NCBI RefSeq assembly: GCF_002443255.2
Contig: NW_019211455.1
Span: 5,748,597 to 5,812,596, forward strand
Length of the DNA stretch: 64,000 nucleotides
Source: Varroa destructor
Lineage: Eukaryota > Arthropoda > Arachnida > Mesostigmata > Varroidae
Reading direction: 5' to 3'
Below are positions 20,236 through 49,295 of this stretch, piece by piece. The position numbers and the translations under genes are program-made. The notes beneath the pieces are model-generated. The model was not told the DNA's origin, ran no database searches, and was given only the letters and a program-made list of their open reading frames with translations. Every line of letters starts with the position of its first letter. Positions within the stretch are counted from its first letter, which is position 1.

Positions 20236-20334
20236 AAAGTAAGAATCACTTTCCCCCGCAAAAATATTGACAAGAGACGAAATCAAGTTCTTATGGTGGC
20301 TTGGAATATCATTGTGCTTTCAATGTCTCCTTAC

Positions 20335-20577
20335 CTGGATAATTGTCTTCTCAGCGGGGTGATTTGGGCGGCATTGAGAATGGATCCTCCCGGGTGCTCA
20401 TGGTCCCTCGGGGCTGGGCTGGGCGCCATGATTCGCCCGATCGATACACCCTCGCCGCCTGCGATCTTGCACATGCGAGCCTCACGTGCCAAGCCAGAAT
20501 TTCGTCGGTGCACGTGCGATGTGCCGCACTCCTTGCGTCTAGCCACCAAATATTGTACTCCTTGATCTCCACCTAAC
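20335..20577 (-). CDS. GC-rich islet with candidate exon (left copy)
   Basis: Mirror copy of 48954-49196. On the minus strand an open frame contains ATG with start MAPSPAPRDHEHPGG and ends at a strong donor ATCCAG|gtaagg (exon end at 20335). Two other frames, on both strands, are also open because the patch is GC-rich, so the coding frame is uncertain. Transcription would leave the arm toward 20235, about 100 bp away, so any downstream exon would differ from that of the right copy. Confidence 0.3.
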
Positions 20578-21043
20578 TTTATGAACAAGCCAAAACATCT
20601 GCAAATAGACGGTCTGAATGCTGCAGTTCGATGAAATTACGCGGAAGCAAGCTATAATGCTCACATGGTCCTCATACCGATCGTCTATAGAGTACCTCTT
20701 TATTTACCTAATTATTATGTATGAGCAATACATAGAATTCATTCCGCGATCTCCATACTAACTCCACTAACTTCAATCGCATAAACAACGTATCCGCCAC
20801 ATATAGCTATCCTTGTACACTCTGACTGGTTTATCACTAACATCAAAAACCATTCTGAAGTGAACTTCTGCCACAGTTTACAGCGAGTGTACTCTTCATG
20901 AAAGCTATTTTGGCCGAAGCAAATTCATAGTGTAGAGAAAACGTACGATTTCATGCTACTGTTTTGACCATATCGATCATTGAACGTCAGTCGCGACTGT
21001 TCTACTCTGAATTGTGAGCTGTAGTAAGTGTGTCTTATGTAAA

Positions 21044-21523
21044 ATGCTGCGCTATCGAAGTACGTCACCGGACTGCCAAAACGACCGTTCGAAGACAAAG
21101 AGTCACCGAAGCAAGCCATCGCATGGCAGAGTCATCTTTCGTTCACCGAACCAGGCATTTTATTGTTTATCTGCTAACAATGTTTTCCTGCCCACACGGT
21201 GCACACACATCGACCCACTCGGCACGACCGTCAGCGACCCTTACCCATCCCGCTATATGCCAAGATACTCCGGCCCAGCTGATCTTAGTCGCAAAGATTA
21301 CACCGGTCAGTCATTCCTCGTTTCTTTATATCGCTGGCTTACGTCTTCTCGCCGGCCCTTTTCTGACTTAATGTTTCTGACCGATACGTGCCTCACATGT
21401 ACCGAAAAAGACTTCGCCACACCGAATTGGCAGCTACTGTGGCCTAGAGTGCTTTCGCTACTCGAAGTCGGACCAATGGAGAGCTTGTGCTGTCTTCCCT
21501 ATGCGATGCTTCCACTACTATAA
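21044..21523 (+). CDS. Longest uninterrupted ORF in the window (left copy), hypothetical
   Basis: From the first ATG at 21044 the frame runs 159 codons to TAA at 21521-21523; the open frame extends slightly upstream without an ATG. A second plus-strand frame is open through most of the same interval. No motif, signal peptide or family resemblance is seen; residues are rich in Ser, Arg, Thr and Pro. It is duplicated at 48008-48487. It may be a non-coding GC-rich patch. Confidence 0.2.
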   Translation: MLRYRSTSPDCQNDRSKTKSHRSKPSHGRVIFRSPNQAFYCLSANNVFLPTRCTHIDPLGTTVSDPYPSRYMPRYSGPADLSRKDYTGQSFLVSLYRWLTSSRRPFSDLMFLTDTCLTCTEKDFATPNWQLLWPRVLSLLEVGPMESLCCLPYAMLPLL

Positions 21524-24500
21524 ATAGTGATGAATAATGATGGGAACTTCAGTTGGCTGGCAGCAGCAGCGAACACGTACCACGATTACTTCATTCACAA
21601 AGGCATCTGCTATCACTACCGTCTTAAGCAGTTACCTGTCTCTATAAAAACAAAATTAGTTTTCAACTGTAGATAACTGAATGGAGCCGCGGCTTACCTC
21701 TACGCTCCCATTTTATCACCGTCGGCATTATGCCTACCTCATATCAGTCAACAGCGATATGGCCTTTAGCATATGATATGTATATGCATATACGAAAGAT
21801 CAGTGAGTCTCGGAACGCGCAGGAGAACGCCGCTTCCTATACGACGATATCCTGACAAAAACCTGATAGGCTAGTAAAAAGGAAACTGGCTAGAAATGCT
21901 TTATAACTATAAATTACGTCTGTTCTGAACTATTGTTTGTGAAGGATCATTCGAATTGGTCGGGCGTCACGATCTGGCTAACAACTAACACTTATACTGA
22001 TTAAACGAAAGAAAAGACATTTTTCTAACTGTATGAGTAAGAATATCAATGAGCTTCAAGTTTTCATTGAGGCAATGCGTATACTTTTTACAGGTAAACT
22101 TTTATTTTTTTAATGCACTACATATATGGAATATTTAATCAACAGCCAGACGAGCCCGCCGCAGCCGCTAACTTCACTTATACTGCGAGAAATATCGTAC
22201 CGCGTTAGTGCATAGCTGAGGCGTGTTGGTAAAGTGGTATTGTGACAAACTAATTATCTTAGGCCAATATTCGATTTCAAACACAAAGAGAGCATAATAG
22301 CAAGCTAATGAGAACTTCGCGAAAAAAACGCGTCGGACTTCACACAATGCTATCCTAACGACGGTTCTCGAGTGGAAAAAACAGCTTGTCTTCATGTTAG
22401 CCGAACATAAAAAATGCGTTGCCACTAGTGCTTTCGTTTGCTACTTTGTAGCTGGATTTGTACATAAATCTCATTGTGATTGCAGCAGATGTAATAAGCT
22501 TAACAAAAATGATGACATTGATTGCGCTGTCCGAGTCGTAACTATGAGATAAAATTATAGGTTCCATCACGACCTAAACTCTGGTGGAGTTAGATCGATG
22601 CTGATCATGTGAATAAGTTGCCAGTAGAGAACAGTTCGGTTACGAGAGCTGGTCTTGGTATTTAGAACTTAAGGTCAATGGCGTACGTTTATAGCGCCTC
22701 CATGTCGACAATATTTAAAGTAACACTTTCATTTTTGCTTCGTAAAGCTAACTAATTCTTACTGCTGTGCCTTCATATGCACAGACTCAGCTACAATTGA
22801 CTCCTTGGCAAAAGGGAAGCAATGTTCTCCTTTAATAGAAAATCTGCATTTCAGAATGATGGCCAAACTTGACCAATAGACTCACTAAGCGTCGCAAATA
22901 TGTTTACCTCATTTTGACTGTCCCTTAATTACATAGTAAGATAAACTTTCAAATTGTAATGCATGCACAGTCTTCGGGTGAGCCTATTTTCAGTAATGCG
23001 GATCCCGCGCACGTCTATGCCACGTACGTTTTACAAGTCAGAAATTCGCCTTTTTTCTCTTCTAGACTTCAAGTGATGTCAAGTCATGCAAAAACGAACT
23101 TGTCACGTGCTCAAAGAGATAGGGCTTTCATGTCATTAGTTCATTTGCAGTGGAAAATAAAATTACGCCATTGCATACGCCTCGTCCCCTGGCCACCAAG
23201 TGTTACTGATGGTCACCACTAATCACCGCGATGGCAGCCGCAGCGAGCAGCGGGCGTCTCCGCTCTCTTCTTTTTCCCCATGCCCTATCCCAAGCAGAAA
23301 AAAATTTAACATCGTATCGTACTATCGTTGCTGCTGCTTCTTATTTACATTTTTGGTCTCCGCTTGTTTCCTTCTTAGGCTGGTGCCAGCGTCAGCAGCT
23401 GCTTCTGCTCTTGGTCAAATTGGTTGTTTGGCCGCCTAGGCTCCGAGCACCGTTCAGGGCGGTACGATGCTATATCGACCTGAGTACACTGTCGTTGCCT
23501 TAGCAGTCGGCCATGAAACAGAGGCTACCAACAGCAGGACAGGGAAGATTCCTGATGTGTGCTGGACCTGCTAGCATCAGCGCGGTGGTCTTCTGTAAAT
23601 GACGCGCATTGGGCGACGGTGAAGCAAGAACGCGGGAAGCACGCGCCGCAAAAGCAGAAGCAGCGGAAGCAGCCTGCCAATCAGCTGCGGCGTCATTTAT
23701 CACTAGGCGAGAACGCAGACCGCCAGGATCAGTATACCCACTAGGCCCGTAGAATACTTGCCAACAGAGTGATCCGATAAAAACTCTCTCTGAGTTATCT
23801 GCACTATTCCACCGGCACTCAGGCTACGGAGCTACGAAATTTTATTTATGAAGAGCGATTATGTAAGAATAGTAATTATGTCAGAAGCATTTTATCCCAG
23901 CTTCGCAAACAGAGAAAGTCTCGTTCATTCAACGTAACCACCATTCCTCACGATTACAGCTCCAATTCAACTTCCGAACTACTCACAAGCTTTTCGTTTA
24001 AGCGATTCCAGGAGTAAGCGAATCGACGTTGTTGTATCGAGGCTTGTTGTTATTGGCTCTCACTCAATAGCGTTACTTATATACTAAAGGTTTCAGATCT
24101 GGGCCGCTCGCCAGCTATGTATTGATTCCACCATGTGCTCGTATGTTCAAGCAGCCGGTCCTACACTATTTGACTTGTACAAATCGATGCACGATTTTGT
24201 TAAAGGACGTATGATTCGACGGTCACCTGAGGTATCCACGGTTGCTTTGCTTAACACCTGGTCGATCATGCAGATATAACTTTTTAGTTATGCGCCCACC
24301 TTGCTGGAAGAAAAAAGCTGGTATAACGTCTCTTTCACTGGACGCTATCCTCAGAACATGAACTTCCCGTCAGAGAGAAATCAACGAGAGTTGACCAGCA
24401 AACAACACCGAATTTTATTGTTCTCAGAGAGCATATGTCTGACCTTCACGACATGTGACATCTACTTATGTGAGATGTAAATAATTTGTGACACCGAACG

Positions 24501-25032
24501 TTTACTCACGTTAAATTTCCTCACTAGAACCCCGTTTGAAACAGAGCTATCATTAGAAATGCACCTTTGGCTGGCAACAATCGACTTTGAAGTTCGCACT
24601 GTTTGTTTTTTTGCTGTCGTGGACTTTCTGTTGCGATGCGTTAATACTTGCTTCTGTTCCTTCTGAAAACGCATACGTTTTAGCTACACGGCAGACTGTC
24701 GATTCGGTACGGTCTAAAAAGTTCATTTTTTTGGTGGCGGTTTGTCTGACGCATACCGATTGGATCATTGCTGATCTTCCCTCGAACGACGCACTATTGT
24801 TCGCTACGATAAATTTACTTTTTTGTAGTAGAAATAATTAATTTTTGCCTGGTACTAGAAGTAGCCAATGAACGCATGCCTGTTACGGCAATCACATTTA
24901 CTATAGAAGTCAAATACACTTAGCTACCGTAAGAAATTCTATACGGGGTTGTTTGAATGAATGGGATATTACTTGAGTAGCGTCTCCGATGGCTTACGGG
25001 CCTTATTTGCTAGCCACTAGGCCATAAAATCC
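21524..25032. other. Left arm, no supportable gene
   Basis: Includes a GC-rich islet at about 23220-23750 with open frames on both strands (one beginning ATGGCAGCCGCAGCG at 23231) but no splice-supported model. Mirrored at 44499-48007. Confidence 0.5.
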
Positions 25033-25100
25033 CGGAATAGCTTAGTGAGTAACGTACTTGCCCGCTAATCTTAGCGACACGTGGTCCAGATTTACACCTG
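25033..25100 (+). repeat. tRNA-like SINE head (left copy)
   Basis: TAGCTTAGTGAG at 25038-25049 matches the RNA polymerase III A-box consensus at nearly every position. GGTCCAGATTT at 25083-25093 is a decayed B box. The 45-nt spacing is that of a tRNA. The body downstream is not recognised; probably an old tRNA-derived SINE. Mirrored at 44431-44498. Confidence 0.4.
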
Positions 25101-28100
25101 AGCATAGACGCACAGTTCGTTCCGTGCTGAGAGCCAGCCAAGCTGATGGAGTGTTTAATGGCGATACCGGATGTAAAAGTCGAAACATGGAACCAAGGTC
25201 CATTGAGCGCAGGTGGACCTTAGCTCCGGTGCTTGCCTGGTTTTTGTTGTCGTCCTATTTAACGCATCTACGTCACTGGCAATGAATATGTATGATGTTC
25301 TGCCAGACGACTACGTATATCAAGACATGTAGGCAGTCTCAAGAGGTGCGCGTCAGGATCAGGTCATAGATAAGGTGGATTGACGCACTCTTCTTGATTG
25401 AATAGTAGAGCTGGAATAGGCAAACGATAACAATTGAATTTGCAACGAATTCAATCACTATCGTATTGTCGGTTGAATAATACTGTGTAATGTCGCTCTC
25501 TTACCGTTTTCACTGCGACTCCGCAGTCTATCGCCTAGCTCGCAAAACAATCTTCTTCGAGATGACAGTACAATTGCATTCATTGCTGCTAATCTTTTTC
25601 TCGCCTTTCGATGTCAGCGTCATTTTATGGTCTCATTGTTTCAATTCATACGAAACTATTATTAAGTAACGAATGTAGTCGATCATGATGCGGTGTGTTA
25701 TGCTGCGATCCTTCGTTACTTGATTTTTTGCTTTTCTATCAATGCTTCACTCATATTTACCATAGATATTGATACGGATTTAACACCATTCCCATCACCA
25801 AATTTTAAGCATGTTTTCTTATATACAGCAGTAGGCACTCGCACACGACGAGCTTTGCTACATGTTTTTCTCTGTAGACAGGGCTCTTCGTATAAATCTT
25901 GACAAGAGACAAGCTATAATAGCCGTTGGTCATCAGTAGCGCGTCCTGATCATTGGTGTCCATTTGCGACAATACCACGGCACATCTTTAACTGGCTTGA
26001 TGGTTTCATAAGATATGGGCCTGTTGCATTTGTCGATGTTGACAAATGCAACAGGCCCATCTTCGGTTTGGGTTTGTTGACGGCTTCATTCTACCACTAT
26101 TTTTTCCCTATTTAATACACTGTATACTAACGTTCTTTCCTGTATACTACGAGTTTAGATATTCTCGTCATATCCGAATCGTTCTGTCGATTTTTTCCGC
26201 TTCCTTAGTTGTCGTAGAACCATTATCTTTCTCTGCTTTATCTTGCGTCGTGTATTTTCGGCAGTTCTATACAGGGCTTCTGCAAGCTAGATGTCAAAAA
26301 GGGACCGGGCGTGACGGTGGCTAAATGTGGACAGACCTTTTGAAAGAAAAATACGTTTGGGCTTAATGTTTATAACCAATCATACAGCAGACGAAATAGG
26401 GAGTGGATTTAGCCTGCCACAGTATGACTGCGATCCATAATCTTGATCCGTAAATGATTTTCTTGGAGGTGTAATTATCATCACTAATGTTTTGTTCGGT
26501 AATACAGCTAGGCGTGCATGCACACACGAACATAACGCTTTTATATGTTATGCATAGATGTATATATATCCATTGAGAATCTAGCACTATCATCAATCCT
26601 GAAATCACTTTTACTACAATTAACGATACGGCTTTTGCTCTAATTGCCATGGATACCGTCTTATCTTGTTTACCAACATTAACAGTGTCATGTTATCGTC
26701 TGTTAGCAGCCGATCTTAATATTCATAGAATGTTTTTCATGGTGTTTTGTATCGGCAATAGCATAGCTCAGCTGCCTATCTGCAGCATGAATAGTTCGTA
26801 GGCAATTTTACTCATATTACTAATTATAGCAATACTCGAATGGTGTATTGACATTTTCTAACGCTTGAGGGCATTGTTCGTCTATTTTGCGGCTGTCCTA
26901 TTATATTTTTTCCGTGTAAGGAAAAAAAAAAGGAAATTTAGACGAAAGCACATGTTCTGTCTGTAGGCCGTATAAATGTGTGTATAACTAGGAGGGATAT
27001 GCTTTTGAATGTAGATATAAGCTATTGTTGTATTTCATTTTTTTTTGTATATATTTATCTATCTCGACATTGATTAGAATTGAACATAATAATTACTAGT
27101 GCTGTAAATATCATGCTATGTCTCGACGCGATTTCTTTGCACGCTTTGGTTCAGCATCGTCATCATTATATCATATTAAGCCACCATTAAGCAAAGGTGA
27201 TCGGTTATATGCACTTAACACTTATTTCCTTCCTCCGCTTTGTTCGGTGCGTTTATGACAGACGTTTACACTATTTTAATGTGTTATGTAAATTTTCTCT
27301 GGGTGTGAAGACTGGCTTCGTCTTTGAAGCCAACATCGCTCTATTTTGCTCTTGTTTGTAATACAACAATAATGTACACATATAAAACATGTATATACGT
27401 ATATATATAAACATTGTTGTTTTTAATCGTCATAGATTATGCCTGTTAAACCCAAAAACTAAGAGTGCTAGCTTTCGTCTGTGAACGATTGCGATTAGAA
27501 AAAAAAATCTCTTGTGGTCCAACTGTCGAGGCAATCTGCTGTAGGCTAGCCATGTATTCATGGATTGATGATATACTATCATTGTGCCGTTCCAACTTGA
27601 TGAATGTGATCAAAGTCCGGCTGGTAGCCATAAATACGATGGGTGACTACAGTGTTTTCCGAGATGAGGTGTGTTCCGAGATGTTGGAGCAGTGAAGACG
27701 TTAATGATGAAAGTGTGAAGCGTGTCTAGTGTTGTACTCACTTGTAGCCGGAACATAAGCGGAAAATACCAACGTAACATTCGATTCTATAACCTTGAAC
27801 AAAGACATTGGTAGAGCTGTTGAACTACCGTGGATGTTCAATTCAGTTAATTAACAACAGCAACGACCGTCATTGTTTATTTATACTGTTTTCCAAACAA
27901 TCATAAAATCGTATATGTTGAACTCACTAACTGAAATTTACGGATTGGGCTGTCTAACTGTCGATAATTATTAGATTTTGATTTCGAGTACGAATTAAAA
28001 ATACTGCTAACGCGTACAACAACCATCTATGTAGGAACGGGCAGGTAAAGATTAGCAAAGAAGCATATTGTACAAAGGCGCAAACGCAACACAGATTTGT

Positions 28101-28933
28101 TGTACCCGCGTTTTGGACTGAGGCGTTTTTCTCGATGCTCCAAAAAATCGTATAACTCGTTGAGCCTAGAGAACCTTTTTGCCTGCGCACGAAAGATAGG
28201 ACGGAAAAGAGCGGAAAATCTTCGTCGTTACGTCGACAATGCACAGTTCAACGAAAGTAGAACCCTGACTACACGAAAGCTTGTCGATAATTTTCTATTT
28301 ATATGCGTATGAGAGTGTAGAAAGAGGGACTTGGCAGGAGGTCTGAGTCGTGGGCAGCACTAGTTGTAGTTAGCAAGGTTACCCGCAATATACATGTTGA
28401 CAGAAAGGAGGAGTCTCCCCTATGTATATCAACATTGCTACGACCCTAAGCCTCGTTGCTTCGGACAATGACGGTGGTAGCTCTAATTAACAAGTAGAAT
28501 TGTTTTACTCTGATTTCTTCTATTCTCCGCTCCGCAGTTGCCTCGTGGCAAGGCGACTGAACAAGCAAAGGCAGTCCGTAGAAGATTCCTAGTTAGGAAA
28601 GTTAGCGCTAGTTAGAAAAGAGAACGATTTAGCTAACGACATAACGGCTACAGCACGCGCCCCAAAAGATCCATGTGAAATTGCATGAGAAGTGAAAAGA
28701 AAATCGTTAAGCCCGATTGTCTCGGCTTTTCGTAGTAGTTGATACAGACTTTCGCTGTGAACTGTTCTCCTCCCGAAACTCCAATTGACGAACTATTTGT
28801 TCGAGCCCATAAATGTGTAGAGTAAAATCTAAAAGTTTACAAACGAAAAGTTGCAAAGGTGATTCTCATACACCTAGATGCAATGATAGAGTCGATAATC
28901 AAAGTAGGTTTTAGGATTTTTTTGTGACACGGT
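25101..28933. other. Left arm, no supportable gene
   Basis: Contains the perfect hairpin at 26015-26060. An open plus-strand frame at 27465-27695 ends near a donor-like gatgag|gtgtgt but has a poor acceptor. Mirrored at 40598-44430. Confidence 0.5.
26015..26060. repeat. Perfect 20-bp hairpin with 6-nt loop (left copy)
   Basis: atgggcctgttgcatttgtc at 26015-26034 is exactly complementary to 26041-26060, with loop gatgtt. It is too short for a normal miRNA precursor. Mirrored at 43471-43516. Confidence 0.85.
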
Positions 28934-28991
28934 GTACTTCACCATCGTATCATGCTAATTAAGGCATCTTATAAAGTAGGTGGTGAAGTAC
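28934..28991. repeat. 11-bp inverted repeat flanking 36 bp (left copy)
   Basis: gtacttcacca (28934-28944) and tggtgaagtac (28981-28991) are exact inverted repeats. They could be the ends of a tiny foldback element, but no target-site duplication is evident. Mirrored at 40540-40597. Confidence 0.5.
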
Positions 28992-29159
28992 GCGCGGAAT
29001 TATTTCAGACAAAGTAACATTATTCACGTGTGTGCAATGCAAACCGATCATAACGTAGCTGATGTCGGCGTAATGATTATCAAGCCCATAAATAGAGTCC
29101 GCCGTTCATCACAGCCAGCAATGCTAAGGTATATAGTATACTTTAATAATAATGAAGCA

Positions 29160-29275
29160 TACTTTAATAAATATAAAGTATAAACATAAAGTATACTTTA
29201 ATAAATATAAAGTATAAACATAAAGTATACTTTAATAAATATAAAGTATANNNNNNNNNNNNNNNNNNNNNNNNN
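29160..29275. repeat. 34-bp minisatellite with assembly gap (left arm)
   Basis: Two full 34-bp units (29160-29193, 29194-29227) and a partial third built on tactttaataaatataaag, then 25 N at 29251-29275. A diverged copy precedes the array. Each unit contains an internal inverted repeat (aaagtatactt), which favours slippage and sequencing failure. The gap lies on the inner side of the array here but on the outer side in the other arm. Confidence 0.85.
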
Positions 29276-29280
29276 TAGTA

Positions 29281-32200
29281 TACTGCCCCATTGTTAAGTT
29301 TAGTGTCCTGGAGATCCCGGCAAGGCTTCCTATAAAACGTACTCTCTATATAATAGTAAAACATAAAAAAAAATTAGTAATGTAATATTAACCTTATGTC
29401 TAAATTGCACAAACTTCATCTTAAGTAGAATATAAGAATGAAATATTTCAGACATTCAGCACAGCAACCGTTTGAATCACGTAATTAGTATGGACGAAAC
29501 ACGTTCTGACATATCGCTCTTAGTATCCTAGGTAGAAAGAAATCAAAATAACTGCTAATTTAATGATGACACATTTTAGTTCTATTAATAGCAATTCAAG
29601 TTGACCCACTGCTATCCGACACGATGCCCAGGAATTAAGGGCATTACAACTACTTTCTAAATAAGTGGACTCTCAAAAAGTCAGGGGTATTTGTACGGAG
29701 AGCAATGTTCGTTTTTGAGCTTTTGAGAACCTTCATAGAGCAAATTCACGTGCGGTCATCGTGGGTCGTCATCCGATCAGGGGAGTGAAAAAACCGACGT
29801 CGAAGGATATCAATAGGCTCAACTGTGGCGCATCGGTAAAATTCATCCCGGTAGTCAGCGTTCGTATCATTAGTCAAGTAAACTTTTTTCCGTATAAGGA
29901 CAATCTCTCTGTGTTATTCGATTATTTGCTTGTGAAGCGGCATTTTCTCGTGAGAAAGGCTGATGCCGATACCGATTTCATGCCTCAGGATGAACTCAAT
30001 TCATCATGGATTTGGAGAGATACATCCATGAGGAATAACAGCTGTACGCCATACTGAATTTGCTAATGAAGTACGTTCTAAATAAAACTTATTTTTCTAA
30101 GCTGCTAAACCAGATTTGCCAGCATGAGGTTGAGGATTCAATTTTTATCTAAGCTTTATGGACTATTTAAAATTGATCGATTTTTTGGTATTCGCAGATT
30201 TCGCGTTTGACTGTTTTTAACAAGTTCATATTCGCTCTGTGTCTAAAATGATTTTCGAAAGAGTAAATTACCAAAAAAATCATTTGTATGGCACAATCTG
30301 GCTTCACGGAAAAACGCTAACTGAGCCTGAATGATCGGAACTTAATTATCATAATGGCTCACAAGCGAATCCGCCTTTTGTGATATTGTTTTTCTAAAAA
30401 AATATCCGCTACACGATTGCCCTGATATACACACAGCATGCTCCAGCTTACGCCATTATGCGGCTATTAATGTTCCCCACTGTCAACCGATCTGAAGAGC
30501 TTCGGTGGTGGCTCGCATTCATTATCATATTTAGGCCATTGCGTTCATACCGTACCTTTAGCGTAAAAGAGTGGGATCTATCACCTACAAAATGTCCGAA
30601 TCTAGTTATCGTTGGTTTTTTCATGATTCTCTTTCGTATGATCGACCAGTACAAAAAATACTCTAGACTAACAACGTTGCTCTCGTTCTAGATGTAGATC
30701 TGATCGACGTCTTACTCTGCTTCTTAAGTAATATAGAGGTGCACTACCTTCCAGCAATACATATATTTGAGAATTTTAAGACCATTTTAAAGTGTAGTAT
30801 AGAAGCCAACTGCGCTCGTTAAAGCCCTGAATAATCTATCGAATATATTAGGTTGATTTGTGACCTCAGTAATGTGCGGATGGAGTCCTGCAAATAATCT
30901 GCCTAGCGAAAGCGTTTTCGAGACAAAGCATTAATACGCGGGCCTGCACAGAGTCTTCGCAACGTCCTTGGCGGATAGTTAACCTACCGAATTGGGCCTC
31001 TTGTTAGCCCTAACTTTTAACTGTCTACCATACAGACAGTCAAACAGCGAAATATTTAGTTATCGATTTTGTAACTATATAATTTCAGTATTAGCCTTGG
31101 AGGGGAAACGTAGAGAAGCCCAAACATACGTATTCAGAATAACGCGTTGACTCGTCGTACGTAACATGCAGTAAGCAAATTGCGTCATGCTGAATAGTGA
31201 GGGCGTGCTATTCATCACCTAACAGCCCTTTCAGAGCGAGGTAGATGAATGAGATCAACTATAATCTTCTCGAAAAAAACGCGCGTGGTCGTCTTCTGAG
31301 CGACAGGCACACAGCAATCAATGTTTAGCTTCGTATGCGGAAAACTCTTGGGTTTGTTGGGCAACTTATAGGCTATGAACGCTTCATTCTGAAAATTCCA
31401 GCGGTTACCAGCGGATGATTCGAGAATAATGCTACCGCCCTGTCATTTCGAGTGTAGAGGTCGGGCAATGACAGCCATAGGTTCGAGAAGAAAATCATAC
31501 AAAAACTTTTACGGTTCGAGAAAACATCGTGCGTCAAGAAACGTTTGTATTACGATTTGCTAAGTTTCGTTCACTTAGAGTCCTTAGTTCTGGGAAAGTT
31601 CATTGCCGAATTTTCTGAAGGGCTCACTGAACTCTTTCCTGGACGATGCTAAAGATTATCCTTGGGAGATAGGCGGAACAAATGATCAGTAGCAAACATA
31701 CTCTAACGCTAATGATAACAACAAGGTCAATTTCTAACGAATTGTTTAAGAAAATATTGCTTCACTGGTAATTCTCGGAGGAGGACAATTCATCTTGTTC
31801 CAACACGAATCGGTACATAAAATCCTTTATGAAGGCGTCTTTCGTCAGGAGAAAAGAAGAAGCTGTTTCTCCTTTTTTGAATGATACCGTCGGAACACTA
31901 GGGCCAGCCCATAACGTTGAAATCTTTAGTGGACGTTCCTGTGAAATCCTGAAGAAAGCGATGATATATCCGTCTACCAAACGGAAACAATCAGATGAAT
32001 TTCACGCTTGCTATAGATAACGCCCCTCTGAGTCAGCGTACTTCAGCCGTTAGGCTCTTAGTCTAACCGTACGGGACTGTTGTGGTCAGGAGTATTTAAC
32101 GACTACGTATTACTATGCGATGAACGCAATTTGACGCTCTAAACATTTTGGCAGTGAATTATTTCGGGAAGGGTAAAAATCGCAAAAAAAAACGGCGAAT

Positions 32201-33019: not shown

Positions 33020-33168
33020 CTAAATCGGACGTGGGTCTTGGTGATGGATAACGCGAGGGTGGGGCGAGGCTACACGGCTAGCAATGTGAGCTTCGATATG
33101 ATAGGGCTCGTAAAAGACTCCCAGTTTAGCGGCGACGGGACCCAGTAGAACAGCACCGGTGGGCTTGG
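33020..33168 (-). CDS. Candidate terminal exon (left copy)
   Basis: Mirror copy of 36363-36511; see that entry for the reading. On this strand it would be transcribed from the palindrome centre outward. Confidence 0.33.
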
Positions 33169-36511: not shown

Positions 36512-39500
36512 TTGCCTCTCTATTTCAGCTTCCGAAGGCGAGGACAATGACGCGTGACCGCACGACTTACGGCCAGTGTAAATCTCACATTAGCTGCTCA
36601 ACTTACAAATGCTAACCCCTATCCTATTTTTGTCAGACTTGCAAAAGGACCCATCCAGAACCTTGGCAATTCGAATCGTCTACTGAGAGAGGCACTTATG
36701 GGACCCCATGATTGGGTACGAATGATCCTTGCAGGGTTTCCAATGCAAACCAAGAAGCTGGATAATTAGATTCAATGACAATGTGAAGTGCACCGCATAC
36801 TCCACCTTAAACGCTGCTTGTACGCAAGCATTGAGACACAAGCACATTCTTTCACAGTCCACCTCTTCCCCAGATATCTGTTTATTAGCTGCGACGCGAT
36901 AAGGGTTTTAGTGATAGGTCAGATATCTATGTGTCGTCATAACCGTGTATTTTTATCCTGGGATGTAATCTCTCAATGTGCAACAGATAGCTTTGCAGTA
37001 TATACGGCATACAAGGAATGCGTACGTTTATGATAATTATTATAGTAATCACCTACCTTTGTTATATCTAGTCGCTCCGCTGAATTAAATTCATATTTAC
37101 AATATGGCTTTTCCAGAGAAAGAGTTGAAAAAATTATGTTTGCCAGGATCTCACAGTGAATACTACTGACTTCAAATTATAGTAATCATTGTTGTCTTAT
37201 ATAATCATATGGGTACTTTCCAACAGAGCGGGAGATACACACCTGAAACGCATTTGTTGTATCTCTGTTGACTGCTAGTTATTTCATTCGAGTATTCATA
37301 AATCCCTCAAAATCGAGCTATACTCATGGAATTCGCCGTTTTTTTTTGCGATTTTTACCCTTCCCGAAATAATTCACTGCCAAAATGTTTAGAGCGTCAA
37401 ATTGCGTTCATCGCATAGTAATACGTAGTCGTTAAATACTCCTGACCACAACAGTCCCGTACGGTTAGACTAAGAGCCTAACGGCTGAAGTACGCTGACT
37501 CAGAGGGGCGTTATCTATAGCAAGCGTGAAATTCATCTGATTGTTTCCGTTTGGTAGACGGATATATCATCGCTTTCTTCAGGATTTCACAGGAACGTCC
37601 ACTAAAGATTTCAACGTTATGGGCTGGCCCTAGTGTTCCGACGGTATCATTCAAAAAAGGAGAAACAGCTTCTTCTTTTCTCCTGACGAAAGACGCCTTC
37701 ATAAAGGATTTTATGTACCGATTCGTGTTGGAACAAGATGAATTGTCCTCCTCCGAGAATTACCAGTGAAGCAATATTTTCTTAAACAATTCGTTAGAAA
37801 TTGACCTTGTTGTTATCATTAGCGTTAGAGTATGTTTGCTACTGATCATTTGTTCCGCCTATCTCCCAAGGATAATCTTTAGCATCGTCCAGGAAAGAGT
37901 TCAGTGAGCCCTTCAGAAAATTCGGCAATGAACTTTCCCAGAACTAAGGACTCTAAGTGAACGAAACTTAGCAAATCGTAATACAAACGTTTCTTGACGC
38001 ACGATGTTTTCTCGAACCGTAAAAGTTTTTGTATGATTTTCTTCTCGAACCTATGGCTGTCATTGCCCGACCTCTACACTCGAAATGACAGGGCGGTAGC
38101 ATTATTCTCGAATCATCCGCTGGTAACCGCTGGAATTTTCAGAATGAAGCGTTCATAGCCTATAAGTTGCCCAACAAACCCAAGAGTTTTCCGCATACGA
38201 AGCTAAACATTGATTGCTGTGTGCCTGTCGCTCAGAAGACGACCACGCGCGTTTTTTTCGAGAAGATTATAGTTGATCTCATTCATCTACCTCGCTCTGA
38301 AAGGGCTGTTAGGTGATGAATAGCACGCCCTCACTATTCAGCATGACGCAATTTGCTTACTGCATGTTACGTACGACGAGTCAACGCGTTATTCTGAATA
38401 CGTATGTTTGGGCTTCTCTACGTTTCCCCTCCAAGGCTAATACTGAAATTATATAGTTACAAAATCGATAACTAAATATTTCGCTGTTTGACTGTCTGTA
38501 TGGTAGACAGTTAAAAGTTAGGGCTAACAAGAGGCCCAATTCGGTAGGTTAACTATCCGCCAAGGACGTTGCGAAGACTCTGTGCAGGCCCGCGTATTAA
38601 TGCTTTGTCTCGAAAACGCTTTCGCTAGGCAGATTATTTGCAGGACTCCATCCGCACATTACTGAGGTCACAAATCAACCTAATATATTCGATAGATTAT
38701 TCAGGGCTTTAACGAGCGCAGTTGGCTTCTATACTACACTTTAAAATGGTCTTAAAATTCTCAAATATATGTATTGCTGGAAGGTAGTGCACCTCTATAT
38801 TACTTAAGAAGCAGAGTAAGACGTCGATCAGATCTACATCTAGAACGAGAGCAACGTTGTTAGTCTAGAGTATTTTTTGTACTGGTCGATCATACGAAAG
38901 AGAATCATGAAAAAACCAACGATAACTAGATTCGGACATTTTGTAGGTGATAGATCCCACTCTTTTACGCTAAAGGTACGGTATGAACGCAATGGCCTAA
39001 ATATGATAATGAATGCGAGCCACCACCGAAGCTCTTCAGATCGGTTGACAGTGGGGAACATTAATAGCCGCATAATGGCGTAAGCTGGAGCATGCTGTGT
39101 GTATATCAGGGCAATCGTGTAGCGGATATTTTTTTAGAAAAACAATATCACAAAAGGCGGATTCGCTTGTGAGCCATTATGATAATTAAGTTCCGATCAT
39201 TCAGGCTCAGTTAGCGTTTTTCCGTGAAGCCAGATTGTGCCATACAAATGATTTTTTTGGTAATTTACTCTTTCGAAAATCATTTTAGACACAGAGCGAA
39301 TATGAACTTGTTAAAAACAGTCAAACGCGAAATCTGCGAATACCAAAAAATCGATCAATTTTAAATAGTCCATAAAGCTTAGATAAAAATTGAATCCTCA
39401 ACCTCATGCTGGCAAATCTGGTTTAGCAGCTTAGAAAAATAAGTTTTATTTAGAACGTACTTCATTAGCAAATTCAGTATGGCGTACAGCTGTTATTCCT

Positions 39501-40250
39501 CATGGATGTATCTCTCCAAATCCATGATGAATTGAGTTCATCCTGAGGCATGAAATCGGTATCGGCATCAGCCTTTCTCACGAGAAAATGCCGCTTCACA
39601 AGCAAATAATCGAATAACACAGAGAGATTGTCCTTATACGGAAAAAAGTTTACTTGACTAATGATACGAACGCTGACTACCGGGATGAATTTTACCGATG
39701 CGCCACAGTTGAGCCTATTGATATCCTTCGACGTCGGTTTTTTCACTCCCCTGATCGGATGACGACCCACGATGACCGCACGTGAATTTGCTCTATGAAG
39801 GTTCTCAAAAGCTCAAAAACGAACATTGCTCTCCGTACAAATACCCCTGACTTTTTGAGAGTCCACTTATTTAGAAAGTAGTTGTAATGCCCTTAATTCC
39901 TGGGCATCGTGTCGGATAGCAGTGGGTCAACTTGAATTGCTATTAATAGAACTAAAATGTGTCATCATTAAATTAGCAGTTATTTTGATTTCTTTCTACC
40001 TAGGATACTAAGAGCGATATGTCAGAACGTGTTTCGTCCATACTAATTACGTGATTCAAACGGTTGCTGTGCTGAATGTCTGAAATATTTCATTCTTATA
40101 TTCTACTTAAGATGAAGTTTGTGCAATTTAGACATAAGGTTAATATTACATTACTAATTTTTTTTTATGTTTTACTATTATATAGAGAGTACGTTTTATA
40201 GGAAGCCTTGCCGGGATCTCCAGGACACTAAACTTAACAATGGGGCAGTA
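36512..40250. other. Right arm, no supportable gene
   Basis: Mirror of 29281-33019. Includes an open frame at 36554-36769 with no exon signals. Confidence 0.5.
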
Positions 40251-40255
40251 TACTA

Positions 40256-40371
40256 TATACTTTATATTTATTAAAGTATACTTTATGNNNNNNNNNNNNN
40301 NNNNNNNNNNNNTTTATACTTTATATTTATTAAAGTATACTTTATGTTTATACTTTATATTTATTAAAGTA
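40256..40371. repeat. 34-bp minisatellite with assembly gap (right arm)
   Basis: Same array as 29160-29275 in inverse orientation. The gap of 25 N is at 40288-40312, which does not mirror the left gap (that would be 40256-40280). The 32 bases at 40256-40287, read inverted, are identical to left 29219-29250, so the same piece sits on opposite sides of the gap in the two arms. Confidence 0.85.
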
Positions 40372-40539
40372 TGCTTCATTATTATTAAAGTATACTATAT
40401 ACCTTAGCATTGCTGGCTGTGATGAACGGCGGACTCTATTTATGGGCTTGATAATCATTACGCCGACATCAGCTACGTTATGATCGGTTTGCATTGCACA
40501 CACGTGAATAATGTTACTTTGTCTGAAATAATTCCGCGC

Positions 40540-40597
40540 GTACTTCACCACCTACTTTATAAGATGCCTTAATTAGCATGATACGATGGTGAAGTAC
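40540..40597. repeat. 11-bp inverted repeat flanking 36 bp (right copy)
   Basis: Mirror of 28934-28991, with identical sequence in inverse orientation. Confidence 0.5.
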
Positions 40598-43500
40598 ACC
40601 GTGTCACAAAAAAATCCTAAAACCTACTTTGATTATCGACTCTATCATTGCATCTAGGTGTATGAGAATCACCTTTGCAACTTTTCGTTTGTAAACTTTT
40701 AGATTTTACTCTACACATTTATGGGCTCGAACAAATAGTTCGTCAATTGGAGTTTCGGGAGGAGAACAGTTCACAGCGAAAGTCTGTATCAACTACTACG
40801 AAAAGCCGAGACAATCGGGCTTAACGATTTTCTTTTCACTTCTCATGCAATTTCACATGGATCTTTTGGGGCGCGTGCTGTAGCCGTTATGTCGTTAGCT
40901 AAATCGTTCTCTTTTCTAACTAGCGCTAACTTTCCTAACTAGGAATCTTCTACGGACTGCCTTTGCTTGTTCAGTCGCCTTGCCACGAGGCAACTGCGGA
41001 GCGGAGAATAGAAGAAATCAGAGTAAAACAATTCTACTTGTTAATTAGAGCTACCACCGTCATTGTCCGAAGCAACGAGGCTTAGGGTCGTAGCAATGTT
41101 GATATACATAGGGGAGACTCCTCCTTTCTGTCAACATGTATATTGCGGGTAACCTTGCTAACTACAACTAGTGCTGCCCACGACTCAGACCTCCTGCCAA
41201 GTCCCTCTTTCTACACTCTCATACGCATATAAATAGAAAATTATCGACAAGCTTTCGTGTAGTCAGGGTTCTACTTTCGTTGAACTGTGCATTGTCGACG
41301 TAACGACGAAGATTTTCCGCTCTTTTCCGTCCTATCTTTCGTGCGCAGGCAAAAAGGTTCTCTAGGCTCAACGAGTTATACGATTTTTTGGAGCATCGAG
41401 AAAAACGCCTCAGTCCAAAACGCGGGTACAACAAATCTGTGTTGCGTTTGCGCCTTTGTACAATATGCTTCTTTGCTAATCTTTACCTGCCCGTTCCTAC
41501 ATAGATGGTTGTTGTACGCGTTAGCAGTATTTTTAATTCGTACTCGAAATCAAAATCTAATAATTATCGACAGTTAGACAGCCCAATCCGTAAATTTCAG
41601 TTAGTGAGTTCAACATATACGATTTTATGATTGTTTGGAAAACAGTATAAATAAACAATGACGGTCGTTGCTGTTGTTAATTAACTGAATTGAACATCCA
41701 CGGTAGTTCAACAGCTCTACCAATGTCTTTGTTCAAGGTTATAGAATCGAATGTTACGTTGGTATTTTCCGCTTATGTTCCGGCTACAAGTGAGTACAAC
41801 ACTAGACACGCTTCACACTTTCATCATTAACGTCTTCACTGCTCCAACATCTCGGAACACACCTCATCTCGGAAAACACTGTAGTCACCCATCGTATTTA
41901 TGGCTACCAGCCGGACTTTGATCACATTCATCAAGTTGGAACGGCACAATGATAGTATATCATCAATCCATGAATACATGGCTAGCCTACAGCAGATTGC
42001 CTCGACAGTTGGACCACAAGAGATTTTTTTTTCTAATCGCAATCGTTCACAGACGAAAGCTAGCACTCTTAGTTTTTGGGTTTAACAGGCATAATCTATG
42101 ACGATTAAAAACAACAATGTTTATATATATACGTATATACATGTTTTATATGTGTACATTATTGTTGTATTACAAACAAGAGCAAAATAGAGCGATGTTG
42201 GCTTCAAAGACGAAGCCAGTCTTCACACCCAGAGAAAATTTACATAACACATTAAAATAGTGTAAACGTCTGTCATAAACGCACCGAACAAAGCGGAGGA
42301 AGGAAATAAGTGTTAAGTGCATATAACCGATCACCTTTGCTTAATGGTGGCTTAATATGATATAATGATGACGATGCTGAACCAAAGCGTGCAAAGAAAT
42401 CGCGTCGAGACATAGCATGATATTTACAGCACTAGTAATTATTATGTTCAATTCTAATCAATGTCGAGATAGATAAATATATACAAAAAAAAATGAAATA
42501 CAACAATAGCTTATATCTACATTCAAAAGCATATCCCTCCTAGTTATACACACATTTATACGGCCTACAGACAGAACATGTGCTTTCGTCTAAATTTCCT
42601 TTTTTTTTTCCTTACACGGAAAAAATATAATAGGACAGCCGCAAAATAGACGAACAATGCCCTCAAGCGTTAGAAAATGTCAATACACCATTCGAGTATT
42701 GCTATAATTAGTAATATGAGTAAAATTGCCTACGAACTATTCATGCTGCAGATAGGCAGCTGAGCTATGCTATTGCCGATACAAAACACCATGAAAAACA
42801 TTCTATGAATATTAAGATCGGCTGCTAACAGACGATAACATGACACTGTTAATGTTGGTAAACAAGATAAGACGGTATCCATGGCAATTAGAGCAAAAGC
42901 CGTATCGTTAATTGTAGTAAAAGTGATTTCAGGATTGATGATAGTGCTAGATTCTCAATGGATATATATACATCTATGCATAACATATAAAAGCGTTATG
43001 TTCGTGTGTGCATGCACGCCTAGCTGTATTACCGAACAAAACATTAGTGATGATAATTACACCTCCAAGAAAATCATTTACGGATCAAGATTATGGATCG
43101 CAGTCATACTGTGGCAGGCTAAATCCACTCCCTATTTCGTCTGCTGTATGATTGGTTATAAACATTAAGCCCAAACGTATTTTTCTTTCAAAAGGTCTGT
43201 CCACATTTAGCCACCGTCACGCCCGGTCCCTTTTTGACATCTAGCTTGCAGAAGCCCTGTATAGAACTGCCGAAAATACACGACGCAAGATAAAGCAGAG
43301 AAAGATAATGGTTCTACGACAACTAAGGAAGCGGAAAAAATCGACAGAACGATTCGGATATGACGAGAATATCTAAACTCGTAGTATACAGGAAAGAACG
43401 TTAGTATACAGTGTATTAAATAGGGAAAAAATAGTGGTAGAATGAAGCCGTCAACAAACCCAAACCGAAGATGGGCCTGTTGCATTTGTCAACATCGACA

Positions 43501-44430
43501 AATGCAACAGGCCCATATCTTATGAAACCATCAAGCCAGTTAAAGATGTGCCGTGGTATTGTCGCAAATGGACACCAATGATCAGGACGCGCTACTGATG
43601 ACCAACGGCTATTATAGCTTGTCTCTTGTCAAGATTTATACGAAGAGCCCTGTCTACAGAGAAAAACATGTAGCAAAGCTCGTCGTGTGCGAGTGCCTAC
43701 TGCTGTATATAAGAAAACATGCTTAAAATTTGGTGATGGGAATGGTGTTAAATCCGTATCAATATCTATGGTAAATATGAGTGAAGCATTGATAGAAAAG
43801 CAAAAAATCAAGTAACGAAGGATCGCAGCATAACACACCGCATCATGATCGACTACATTCGTTACTTAATAATAGTTTCGTATGAATTGAAACAATGAGA
43901 CCATAAAATGACGCTGACATCGAAAGGCGAGAAAAAGATTAGCAGCAATGAATGCAATTGTACTGTCATCTCGAAGAAGATTGTTTTGCGAGCTAGGCGA
44001 TAGACTGCGGAGTCGCAGTGAAAACGGTAAGAGAGCGACATTACACAGTATTATTCAACCGACAATACGATAGTGATTGAATTCGTTGCAAATTCAATTG
44101 TTATCGTTTGCCTATTCCAGCTCTACTATTCAATCAAGAAGAGTGCGTCAATCCACCTTATCTATGACCTGATCCTGACGCGCACCTCTTGAGACTGCCT
44201 ACATGTCTTGATATACGTAGTCGTCTGGCAGAACATCATACATATTCATTGCCAGTGACGTAGATGCGTTAAATAGGACGACAACAAAAACCAGGCAAGC
44301 ACCGGAGCTAAGGTCCACCTGCGCTCAATGGACCTTGGTTCCATGTTTCGACTTTTACATCCGGTATCGCCATTAAACACTCCATCAGCTTGGCTGGCTC
44401 TCAGCACGGAACGAACTGTGCGTCTATGCT
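40598..44430. other. Right arm, no supportable gene
   Basis: Mirror of 25101-28933. A plus-strand frame at 41900-42085 begins MATSRTLITFIKLERHNDSI and faintly recalls retrotransposon Gag helices, but it is too short and isolated to call. Confidence 0.45.
43471..43516. repeat. Perfect 20-bp hairpin with 6-nt loop (right copy)
   Basis: Mirror of 26015-26060; loop aacatc. Confidence 0.85.
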
Positions 44431-44498
44431 CAGGTGTAAATCTGGACCACGTGTCGCTAAGATTAGCGGGCAAGTACGTTACTCACTAAGCTATTCCG
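44431..44498 (-). repeat. tRNA-like SINE head (right copy)
   Basis: Mirror of 25033-25100, with A-box-like and decayed B-box-like motifs on the minus strand. Confidence 0.4.
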
Positions 44499-47400
44499 GG
44501 ATTTTATGGCCTAGTGGCTAGCAAATAAGGCCCGTAAGCCATCGGAGACGCTACTCAAGTAATATCCCATTCATTCAAACAACCCCGTATAGAATTTCTT
44601 ACGGTAGCTAAGTGTATTTGACTTCTATAGTAAATGTGATTGCCGTAACAGGCATGCGTTCATTGGCTACTTCTAGTACCAGGCAAAAATTAATTATTTC
44701 TACTACAAAAAAGTAAATTTATCGTAGCGAACAATAGTGCGTCGTTCGAGGGAAGATCAGCAATGATCCAATCGGTATGCGTCAGACAAACCGCCACCAA
44801 AAAAATGAACTTTTTAGACCGTACCGAATCGACAGTCTGCCGTGTAGCTAAAACGTATGCGTTTTCAGAAGGAACAGAAGCAAGTATTAACGCATCGCAA
44901 CAGAAAGTCCACGACAGCAAAAAAACAAACAGTGCGAACTTCAAAGTCGATTGTTGCCAGCCAAAGGTGCATTTCTAATGATAGCTCTGTTTCAAACGGG
45001 GTTCTAGTGAGGAAATTTAACGTGAGTAAACGTTCGGTGTCACAAATTATTTACATCTCACATAAGTAGATGTCACATGTCGTGAAGGTCAGACATATGC
45101 TCTCTGAGAACAATAAAATTCGGTGTTGTTTGCTGGTCAACTCTCGTTGATTTCTCTCTGACGGGAAGTTCATGTTCTGAGGATAGCGTCCAGTGAAAGA
45201 GACGTTATACCAGCTTTTTTCTTCCAGCAAGGTGGGCGCATAACTAAAAAGTTATATCTGCATGATCGACCAGGTGTTAAGCAAAGCAACCGTGGATACC
45301 TCAGGTGACCGTCGAATCATACGTCCTTTAACAAAATCGTGCATCGATTTGTACAAGTCAAATAGTGTAGGACCGGCTGCTTGAACATACGAGCACATGG
45401 TGGAATCAATACATAGCTGGCGAGCGGCCCAGATCTGAAACCTTTAGTATATAAGTAACGCTATTGAGTGAGAGCCAATAACAACAAGCCTCGATACAAC
45501 AACGTCGATTCGCTTACTCCTGGAATCGCTTAAACGAAAAGCTTGTGAGTAGTTCGGAAGTTGAATTGGAGCTGTAATCGTGAGGAATGGTGGTTACGTT
45601 GAATGAACGAGACTTTCTCTGTTTGCGAAGCTGGGATAAAATGCTTCTGACATAATTACTATTCTTACATAATCGCTCTTCATAAATAAAATTTCGTAGC
45701 TCCGTAGCCTGAGTGCCGGTGGAATAGTGCAGATAACTCAGAGAGAGTTTTTATCGGATCACTCTGTTGGCAAGTATTCTACGGGCCTAGTGGGTATACT
45801 GATCCTGGCGGTCTGCGTTCTCGCCTAGTGATAAATGACGCCGCAGCTGATTGGCAGGCTGCTTCCGCTGCTTCTGCTTTTGCGGCGCGTGCTTCCCGCG
45901 TTCTTGCTTCACCGTCGCCCAATGCGCGTCATTTACAGAAGACCACCGCGCTGATGCTAGCAGGTCCAGCACACATCAGGAATCTTCCCTGTCCTGCTGT
46001 TGGTAGCCTCTGTTTCATGGCCGACTGCTAAGGCAACGACAGTGTACTCAGGTCGATATAGCATCGTACCGCCCTGAACGGTGCTCGGAGCCTAGGCGGC
46101 CAAACAACCAATTTGACCAAGAGCAGAAGCAGCTGCTGACGCTGGCACCAGCCTAAGAAGGAAACAAGCGGAGACCAAAAATGTAAATAAGAAGCAGCAG
46201 CAACGATAGTACGATACGATGTTAAATTTTTTTCTGCTTGGGATAGGGCATGGGGAAAAAGAAGAGAGCGGAGACGCCCGCTGCTCGCTGCGGCTGCCAT
46301 CGCGGTGATTAGTGGTGACCATCAGTAACACTTGGTGGCCAGGGGACGAGGCGTATGCAATGGCGTAATTTTATTTTCCACTGCAAATGAACTAATGACA
46401 TGAAAGCCCTATCTCTTTGAGCACGTGACAAGTTCGTTTTTGCATGACTTGACATCACTTGAAGTCTAGAAGAGAAAAAAGGCGAATTTCTGACTTGTAA
46501 AACGTACGTGGCATAGACGTGCGCGGGATCCGCATTACTGAAAATAGGCTCACCCGAAGACTGTGCATGCATTACAATTTGAAAGTTTATCTTACTATGT
46601 AATTAAGGGACAGTCAAAATGAGGTAAACATATTTGCGACGCTTAGTGAGTCTATTGGTCAAGTTTGGCCATCATTCTGAAATGCAGATTTTCTATTAAA
46701 GGAGAACATTGCTTCCCTTTTGCCAAGGAGTCAATTGTAGCTGAGTCTGTGCATATGAAGGCACAGCAGTAAGAATTAGTTAGCTTTACGAAGCAAAAAT
46801 GAAAGTGTTACTTTAAATATTGTCGACATGGAGGCGCTATAAACGTACGCCATTGACCTTAAGTTCTAAATACCAAGACCAGCTCTCGTAACCGAACTGT
46901 TCTCTACTGGCAACTTATTCACATGATCAGCATCGATCTAACTCCACCAGAGTTTAGGTCGTGATGGAACCTATAATTTTATCTCATAGTTACGACTCGG
47001 ACAGCGCAATCAATGTCATCATTTTTGTTAAGCTTATTACATCTGCTGCAATCACAATGAGATTTATGTACAAATCCAGCTACAAAGTAGCAAACGAAAG
47101 CACTAGTGGCAACGCATTTTTTATGTTCGGCTAACATGAAGACAAGCTGTTTTTTCCACTCGAGAACCGTCGTTAGGATAGCATTGTGTGAAGTCCGACG
47201 CGTTTTTTTCGCGAAGTTCTCATTAGCTTGCTATTATGCTCTCTTTGTGTTTGAAATCGAATATTGGCCTAAGATAATTAGTTTGTCACAATACCACTTT
47301 ACCAACACGCCTCAGCTATGCACTAACGCGGTACGATATTTCTCGCAGTATAAGTGAAGTTAGCGGCTGCGGCGGGCTCGTCTGGCTGTTGATTAAATAT

Positions 47401-48007
47401 TCCATATATGTAGTGCATTAAAAAAATAAAAGTTTACCTGTAAAAAGTATACGCATTGCCTCAATGAAAACTTGAAGCTCATTGATATTCTTACTCATAC
47501 AGTTAGAAAAATGTCTTTTCTTTCGTTTAATCAGTATAAGTGTTAGTTGTTAGCCAGATCGTGACGCCCGACCAATTCGAATGATCCTTCACAAACAATA
47601 GTTCAGAACAGACGTAATTTATAGTTATAAAGCATTTCTAGCCAGTTTCCTTTTTACTAGCCTATCAGGTTTTTGTCAGGATATCGTCGTATAGGAAGCG
47701 GCGTTCTCCTGCGCGTTCCGAGACTCACTGATCTTTCGTATATGCATATACATATCATATGCTAAAGGCCATATCGCTGTTGACTGATATGAGGTAGGCA
47801 TAATGCCGACGGTGATAAAATGGGAGCGTAGAGGTAAGCCGCGGCTCCATTCAGTTATCTACAGTTGAAAACTAATTTTGTTTTTATAGAGACAGGTAAC
47901 TGCTTAAGACGGTAGTGATAGCAGATGCCTTTGTGAATGAAGTAATCGTGGTACGTGTTCGCTGCTGCTGCCAGCCAACTGAAGTTCCCATCATTATTCA
48001 TCACTAT
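44499..48007. other. Right arm, no supportable gene
   Basis: Mirror of 21524-25032, including the GC-rich islet at about 45781-46311. Confidence 0.5.
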
Positions 48008-48487
48008 TTATAGTAGTGGAAGCATCGCATAGGGAAGACAGCACAAGCTCTCCATTGGTCCGACTTCGAGTAGCGAAAGCACTCTAGGCCACAGTAGCTG
48101 CCAATTCGGTGTGGCGAAGTCTTTTTCGGTACATGTGAGGCACGTATCGGTCAGAAACATTAAGTCAGAAAAGGGCCGGCGAGAAGACGTAAGCCAGCGA
48201 TATAAAGAAACGAGGAATGACTGACCGGTGTAATCTTTGCGACTAAGATCAGCTGGGCCGGAGTATCTTGGCATATAGCGGGATGGGTAAGGGTCGCTGA
48301 CGGTCGTGCCGAGTGGGTCGATGTGTGTGCACCGTGTGGGCAGGAAAACATTGTTAGCAGATAAACAATAAAATGCCTGGTTCGGTGAACGAAAGATGAC
48401 TCTGCCATGCGATGGCTTGCTTCGGTGACTCTTTGTCTTCGAACGGTCGTTTTGGCAGTCCGGTGACGTACTTCGATAGCGCAGCAT
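48008..48487 (-). CDS. Hypothetical 159-aa ORF (right copy)
   Basis: Mirror copy of 21044-21523, with identical sequence on the opposite strand. The same doubts apply. Confidence 0.2.
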   Translation of the reverse strand: MLRYRSTSPDCQNDRSKTKSHRSKPSHGRVIFRSPNQAFYCLSANNVFLPTRCTHIDPLGTTVSDPYPSRYMPRYSGPADLSRKDYTGQSFLVSLYRWLTSSRRPFSDLMFLTDTCLTCTEKDFATPNWQLLWPRVLSLLEVGPMESLCCLPYAMLPLL

Positions 48488-48953
48488 TTTACATAAGACA
48501 CACTTACTACAGCTCACAATTCAGAGTAGAACAGTCGCGACTGACGTTCAATGATCGATATGGTCAAAACAGTAGCATGAAATCGTACGTTTTCTCTACA
48601 CTATGAATTTGCTTCGGCCAAAATAGCTTTCATGAAGAGTACACTCGCTGTAAACTGTGGCAGAAGTTCACTTCAGAATGGTTTTTGATGTTAGTGATAA
48701 ACCAGTCAGAGTGTACAAGGATAGCTATATGTGGCGGATACGTTGTTTATGCGATTGAAGTTAGTGGAGTTAGTATGGAGATCGCGGAATGAATTCTATG
48801 TATTGCTCATACATAATAATTAGGTAAATAAAGAGGTACTCTATAGACGATCGGTATGAGGACCATGTGAGCATTATAGCTTGCTTCCGCGTAATTTCAT
48901 CGAACTGCAGCATTCAGACCGTCTATTTGCAGATGTTTTGGCTTGTTCATAAA

Positions 48954-49196
48954 GTTAGGTGGAGATCAAGGAGTACAATATTTGGTGGCTAGACGCAAGG
49001 AGTGCGGCACATCGCACGTGCACCGACGAAATTCTGGCTTGGCACGTGAGGCTCGCATGTGCAAGATCGCAGGCGGCGAGGGTGTATCGATCGGGCGAAT
49101 CATGGCGCCCAGCCCAGCCCCGAGGGACCATGAGCACCCGGGAGGATCCATTCTCAATGCCGCCCAAATCACCCCGCTGAGAAGACAATTATCCAG
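48954..49196 (+). CDS. GC-rich islet with candidate exon (right copy)
   Basis: A possible acceptor (ataaagttag) precedes a GC-rich patch open in three overlapping frames. One has ATG at 49102 and 31 codons (MAPSPAPRDHEHPGGSILNA, AQITPLRRQLS) plus two bases to donor ATCCAG|gtaagg at 49196. Another, starting VEIKEYNIWWLDARSAAHRT, runs to TGA at 49178-49180. Because GC-rich DNA has few stops, the choice of frame is open. It points out of the palindrome toward the ninjurin gene but is not in evident continuity with it. Confidence 0.3.
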
Positions 49197-49295
49197 GTAA
49201 GGAGACATTGAAAGCACAATGATATTCCAAGCCACCATAAGAACTTGATTTCGTCTCTTGTCAATATTTTTGCGGGGGAAAGTGATTCTTACTTT

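What the first reader, a model, noticed from the sequence alone, without database searches (positions are those of the whole stretch)
20236..49295. 29-kb near-perfect palindrome: two 14,406-bp arms around a 248-bp spacer
The arms are inverted copies with no substitution seen in any stretch I compared; all pairs satisfy x + y = 69,531. True inverted repeats this long, identical and closely spaced are rare in nuclear genomes, because they form hairpins and recombine. If real, this is a very young inverted duplication or one homogenised by arm-to-arm gene conversion. If not, it is an assembly artefact that would double 14.4 kb of annotation.
Basis: partly seen in the sequence, partly recalled or inferred. 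Interest (0 to 1): 0.9.

Follow-up and report, generated by a model that had tools for sequence, protein, structure and literature searches.

The report
Mite genome's 29-kb mirror-image repeat
The reference genome of the honey-bee parasite Varroa contains a 14.4-kb stretch written twice in mirror image, but matching gap marks suggest one assembled sequence was printed twice, so the identity of the copies proves little and original reads must decide whether two copies exist.

Summary
Arms 20236-34641 and 34890-49295 (14,406 bp each) are reverse complements around a 248-bp spacer, with no A/C/G/T difference outside one gap block. The window is Varroa, almost certainly V. destructor Vdes_3.0, scaffold C2, built from Newbler contigs, Hi-C and PBJelly. 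Gaps of exactly 25 N are a PBJelly mark. The N runs are not mirror images: both lie right of the same 32-bp block in scaffold orientation, and without Ns the arms are identical. So both arms probably existed before gap handling and carry one consensus. "No substitutions" is then no evidence of youth or gene conversion. Four sharp, N-free junctions, with no bases shared at the breaks, modestly favour a real inverted repeat, collapsed and laid down twice. False duplication is nearly as likely. No Pfam domain reached cut-off in the arm. No reads could be examined.

The parts
20236..34641 (+). left arm (A), 14,406 bp including 25 N
34642..34889 (.). 248-bp spacer, 35% G+C, no 8-bp inverted pair inside it; four of its 12-mers recur elsewhere in the window, at three places
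34890..49295 (-). right arm, reverse complement of A, 14,406 bp including 25 N
29155..29250 (+). 34-bp tandem array, 2.8 copies as printed, in which both assembly gaps fall (mate in the right arm)
29219..29250 (+). 32-bp array block lying immediately left of the gap in the left arm
29251..29275 (.). 25-N gap in left arm
40256..40287 (-). the same 32-bp block in the right arm, again immediately left of the gap on the + strand
40288..40312 (.). 25-N gap in right arm; an exact mirror would be 40256-40280
20235..20236 (.). left flank/arm junction, sharp, no N
49295..49296 (.). arm/right flank junction, sharp, no N

Best explanation
The locus most likely holds a real closely spaced inverted repeat (left flank, A, 248-bp spacer, reversed A, right flank). 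Its two arms were collapsed into one set of short-read contigs (A1 and A2, broken at the 34-bp array). That one consensus was then laid down twice, once in each orientation, and the A1/A2 gap was handled separately in each copy, in scaffold orientation. Shown: the structure, the zero base differences, the two 25-N gaps and their non-mirrored placement, the identity after removing N, and the N-free junctions. Inferred: the collapse, the double use of contigs, and that two copies exist in the mite. On this reading the true arms may differ by as much as the short-read assembler merges, so age and gene conversion cannot be judged. It could have arisen by fold-back or template switching at a broken end, which leaves an asymmetric spacer (general knowledge, not tested).
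For: Both gaps sit in the same array with the same 32-bp block on the same (+ strand left) side, and the N-free sequences are identical. Exactly 25 N is described as a PBJelly mark and PBJelly was used on Vdes_3.0. All four junctions are free of N, and the bases directly beside each arm end differ between the two sides, so a false join would need chimeric reads at two places. The one arm piece searched (1,601 bp, 33000-34600) was found at two places in the 366-Mb assembly, both here (the tool calls such counts lower bounds). One long PBJelly fill would not be expected to be error-free: PBJelly fills averaged 88.61-95.17% identity to truth on simulated reads of three species in one benchmark (passages).
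Against: In the published pipeline I would expect each contig to be placed once, so I cannot name the step that printed A twice. No reads, depth or second assembly could be examined. Long, near-identical, closely spaced inverted repeats are rare in nuclear genomes, which favours artefact beforehand. The proovread-processed PacBio reads used here might have given an error-free fill, which would weaken the same-contigs argument. Short AT-rich matches of 6-10 bp occur within 60 bp of the breaks, though not at them, so some homology at the joins cannot be ruled out.
Confidence: 0.5

Rival explanations
1. False duplication: the mite has one copy of A, and the assembly (contig redundancy, scaffolding or gap joining) inserted a second, reversed copy between the spacer and the right flank.
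For: One consensus appears twice, with the same gap footprint. Zero differences over 14,381 bp include homopolymer runs up to 10 bp. The assembly paper itself removed one 100%-identical histone gene copy on a minor scaffold as a possible mis-assembly (passage). The PBJelly paper attributes its overfilled gaps to scaffolding errors or suspected problems in the input assembly (passage).
Against: Needs two false joins, each sharp, N-free and without bases shared at the break. The non-mirrored gaps speak against a second arm copied after gap handling, so a late fold-back read is a poor cause. The spacer has no 8-bp inverted pair. Three PacBio samples in one survey showed no systematic fold-back, but they were HiFi, Mas-Seq and Iso-Seq, not the RSII used here (passages).
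Confidence: 0.38
2. Real palindrome with truly identical arms, independently assembled: a very young fold-back duplication or arms kept identical by gene conversion.
For: Zero differences in 14,381 bp. Inverted repeats with short spacers and near-identical arms are described in Caenorhabditis (passages). The array itself could break contigs in both arms.
Against: The shared footprint at the array, to the base, suggests the arms are not two independent measurements. Newbler at the stated -mi 98 would be expected to merge arms this alike.
Confidence: 0.12

Closest known systems
Caenorhabditis long inverted repeats (for example F44E5.4/F44E5.5: 2,207-bp arms, 126-bp spacer, 99.7% identity; PMC1803023, passages read)
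   Same: Invertebrate nuclear genome, short spacer, very high arm identity.
   Different: Those arms carry paralogous genes and the structure recurs in three species; here the arms are about 6.5 times longer, without a detected gene, and seen in one draft assembly only.
Mammalian X and Y palindromes (search listing only: PMC3723533, PMC8981503)
   Same: Large inverted repeats with arm identity above 99%.
   Different: There, gene conversion was studied directly (abstract starts). This one lies in a haplodiploid mite, its chromosome's role is unknown, and its arm identity is not independently measured.
False duplications and gap-filling errors in draft assemblies (PMC3504050 passages; PMC8848313 passages)
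   Same: Identical copies and PBJelly gap marks.
   Different: All four junctions are N-free and share no bases at the break, which I would not expect of an ordinary mis-join.

Membership tests
Large closely spaced palindrome (inverted duplication) | Two long reverse-complementary arms around a short spacer in the sequence | tested here: met
Large closely spaced palindrome (inverted duplication) | Two physical copies in the organism (depth or spanning reads) | not testable with these tools
   no reads available
Large closely spaced palindrome (inverted duplication) | Arm identity measured independently for each arm | tested here: inconclusive
   shared gap footprint argues against independence but the assembly's intermediate files were not seen
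Gene-converting palindrome | Conversion tracts, or arms more alike within than between sister species | not testable with these tools
   no V. jacobsoni DNA was reached; no arm differences to map
False duplication | Same contig sequence printed twice | tested here: inconclusive
   same gap footprint at array, but depth unknown
PacBio missed-adapter fold-back (features recalled) | No spacer or an adapter remnant; sequence beyond the arm also mirrored | tested here: not met
   248-bp spacer without inverted 8-mers; flanks 28% identical when mirrored
Transposable element inserted twice | Encoded transposase/integrase domain and dispersed further copies | tested here: not met
   no Pfam domain at cut-off in six frames; the one 1.6-kb piece searched was found only at these two places, a lower bound

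The most novel reading that the evidence does not exclude
A genuine tight 14.4-kb-arm palindrome on a major scaffold of a haplodiploid mite, either fixed very recently by fold-back in the invasive lineage (nearly clonal, recalled) or held near-identical by arm-to-arm conversion, and tolerated despite a 248-bp spacer.
Probability: 0.3. Interest if true: 0.5.

Novelty: new member of a known kind. Interest (0 to 1): 0.3.

Why it matters
If real, it would be a large, closely spaced palindrome in an animal nuclear genome, useful for asking how such structures persist and whether haplodiploidy matters. If false, it adds 14.4 kb of spurious sequence to the reference of a major bee pest. In both cases the gap footprint is a simple test for whether inverted repeats in gap-filled drafts are independent copies.

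Tried and rejected
Considered and set aside. Transposon: no Pfam domain at cut-off in the arm, and the one arm piece searched found at two places only. Late PacBio fold-back: the gaps are not mirrored, there is a 248-bp spacer, and the flanks do not mirror. Bacterial or plasmid DNA: animal-type spliced genes flank the arms and one 7,965-base plasmid comparison found nothing. No tRNA and no Rfam match at gathering score in the window.

Led nowhere. The longest arm ORF (21014-21520) matched one protein at E<=0.001 of 19 candidates, itself (a 2-member cluster on 3 contigs, longest 17,230 bp, sources not shown). In viral contigs no pattern matched; in genome contigs 16 stretches matched a pattern, none a relative. 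Nine ninjurin homologues, none named Varroa, gave their strongest matches in the right flank (52633-54951, output cut, seen in part), so they show no gene crossing a junction; exons before 52633 were not found.

Paper searches: 8. Among the rows listed (11 of 11, 1 of 1, 11 of 11, 15 of 17, 15 of 456, 6 of 6, 12 of 15, 12 of 39; titles and starts of abstracts) I saw none describing this locus. PMC6618069 (passage) uses 25 bp only as a counting limit for gaps. A proovread paper was not held.

Not done: copy number of the outer arm, spacer and flanks elsewhere in the assembly, because those searches (20236-23235, the spacer, both flank pieces) did not complete. A base rate of inverted repeats elsewhere in the genome was not obtained. 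Pfam was not run on 5001-5235, nor separately on the right arm, which is the same sequence.

Full report
Observation. Column-by-column comparison shows arms 20236-34641 and 34890-49295 as reverse complements (sum 69,531) around a 248-bp spacer. The 55 differing columns all lie in 29219-29275 and its mate, and come from a 25-N run in each arm. With Ns removed, both arms are 14,381 bp and identical. BLAST of the window on itself returns no other match longer than 63 bp. In 264 kb of surrounding scaffold a low-complexity-filtered self-comparison found no other repeat of 150 bp or more at E<=1e-20, and the only N runs are the two 25-N gaps and one run of exactly 5,000 N.

What the sequence is. Three ORFs of 150 aa or more occur in 64 kb, two of them mirror copies. 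G+C is about 40% and CpG is not depleted (observed/expected 1.09). Six-frame Pfam scans with X at stops found nothing at cut-off in the left arm plus spacer (one sub-threshold CRIM1_C, E 0.19) and nothing in 5236-20237. Positions 1-5000 gave only sub-threshold matches. The right flank holds a ninjurin gene on + and an ALKBH1 gene on -. My ALKBH1 model is 98% identical to the V. jacobsoni protein over 327 columns, with two substitutions and a 3-residue gap at a splice site I chose, and 66% to Tropilaelaps.

Which assembly. The window lies at C2:5748597-5812596 of a held 366,193,577-bp, 112-contig assembly whose first two contigs are 76.9 and 60.6 Mb. PMC6773775 (passages) reports for V. destructor Vdes_3.0 seven major scaffolds of 39.4-76.9 Mb, 1,426 scaffolds and 368.94 Mb in all. 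The held copy is thus slightly smaller; I take it that short scaffolds are missing. Vdes_3.0 was made from one haploid male's Illumina reads with Newbler (-mi 98), RNA and Hi-C scaffolding, and PBJelly gap filling with proovread-trimmed PacBio reads from 1,207 pooled females. That the window is Vdes_3.0 is inference from sizes, gap marks and ALKBH1; the record itself is unnamed.

The gap footprint. PMC6736295 attributes the 25-bp gaps of another assembly to PBJelly, and PMC6733440 says PBJelly inflates gaps under 25 bp to exactly 25 (passages). From the Varroa paper's table, 4,498 contigs in 1,426 scaffolds give 3,072 gaps, one per about 120 kb, mean 88 bp, so two gaps at mirrored places are not coincidence. 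They could share a cause in the array itself, yet they also share their exact bounds. In both arms the same 32-bp array block lies directly left of the N run on the + strand (29219-29250 then N 29251-29275; 40256-40287 then N 40288-40312). A mirrored gap would sit at 40256-40280. So the right arm does not look like a reverse complement made after gap handling; both copies were probably present, with the same contig ends, when gaps were handled. Two independently assembled copies would not be expected to share ends to the base and abut to the same total length. My reading is that one contig pair was placed twice, and that the identity of the arms is then largely by construction.

Is it real in the mite? 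For: all four junctions are free of N. The left and right flanks meeting the arm's outer end share no bases at the break, nor do the two spacer ends meeting its inner end; within 60 bp of the breaks the longest chance-like matches are AT-rich words of 6-10 bp. A false join without overlap or N would need chimeric reads at two places. A 1.6-kb arm piece was found only at these two places (a lower bound). Against: no pipeline step known to me prints a contig twice, long tight inverted repeats are rare, and PBJelly closes gaps with imperfect sequence (PMC8848313 passages, simulated reads). The balance is near even; I put 0.5 on a real but collapsed repeat, 0.38 on false duplication and 0.12 on independently assembled identical arms.

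Comparison. The nearest described structures are long inverted repeats in Caenorhabditis with short spacers (PMC1803023 passages) and mammalian sex-chromosome palindromes (listing only). As a structure in sequence it matches that kind. Membership as a biological palindrome is untested on copy number and doubtful on independent arm identity.

Noticed in passing
57498-57623: 63-bp unit in two tandem copies, 98% alike, between ninjurin and ALKBH1.
   Followed up: no
26015-26060 (and its mate 43471-43516); 11865-11908: Imperfect short palindromes of 46 and 44 bp, 87-91% self-complementary.
   Followed up: no
52633-52746, 53129-53293, 54790-54990 (+): Ninjurin-like gene in at least three exons; best of nine listed homologues was from the scorpion Centruroides.
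   Followed up: partly
50570-50755 (+): End of an open stretch (50402-50755), with an alanine run, that looks coding by eye; not assigned to a gene.
   Followed up: no
G000:C2:5868909-5873908, outside the window: N run of exactly 5,000 bases, either a scaffold gap or a withheld stretch.
   Followed up: no
21014-21520 (+) and mate: The longest ORF in the arm is on record as a 159-aa protein on 3 contigs, longest 17,230 bp, sources not shown; those contigs could show what lies beyond the arm.
   Followed up: partly
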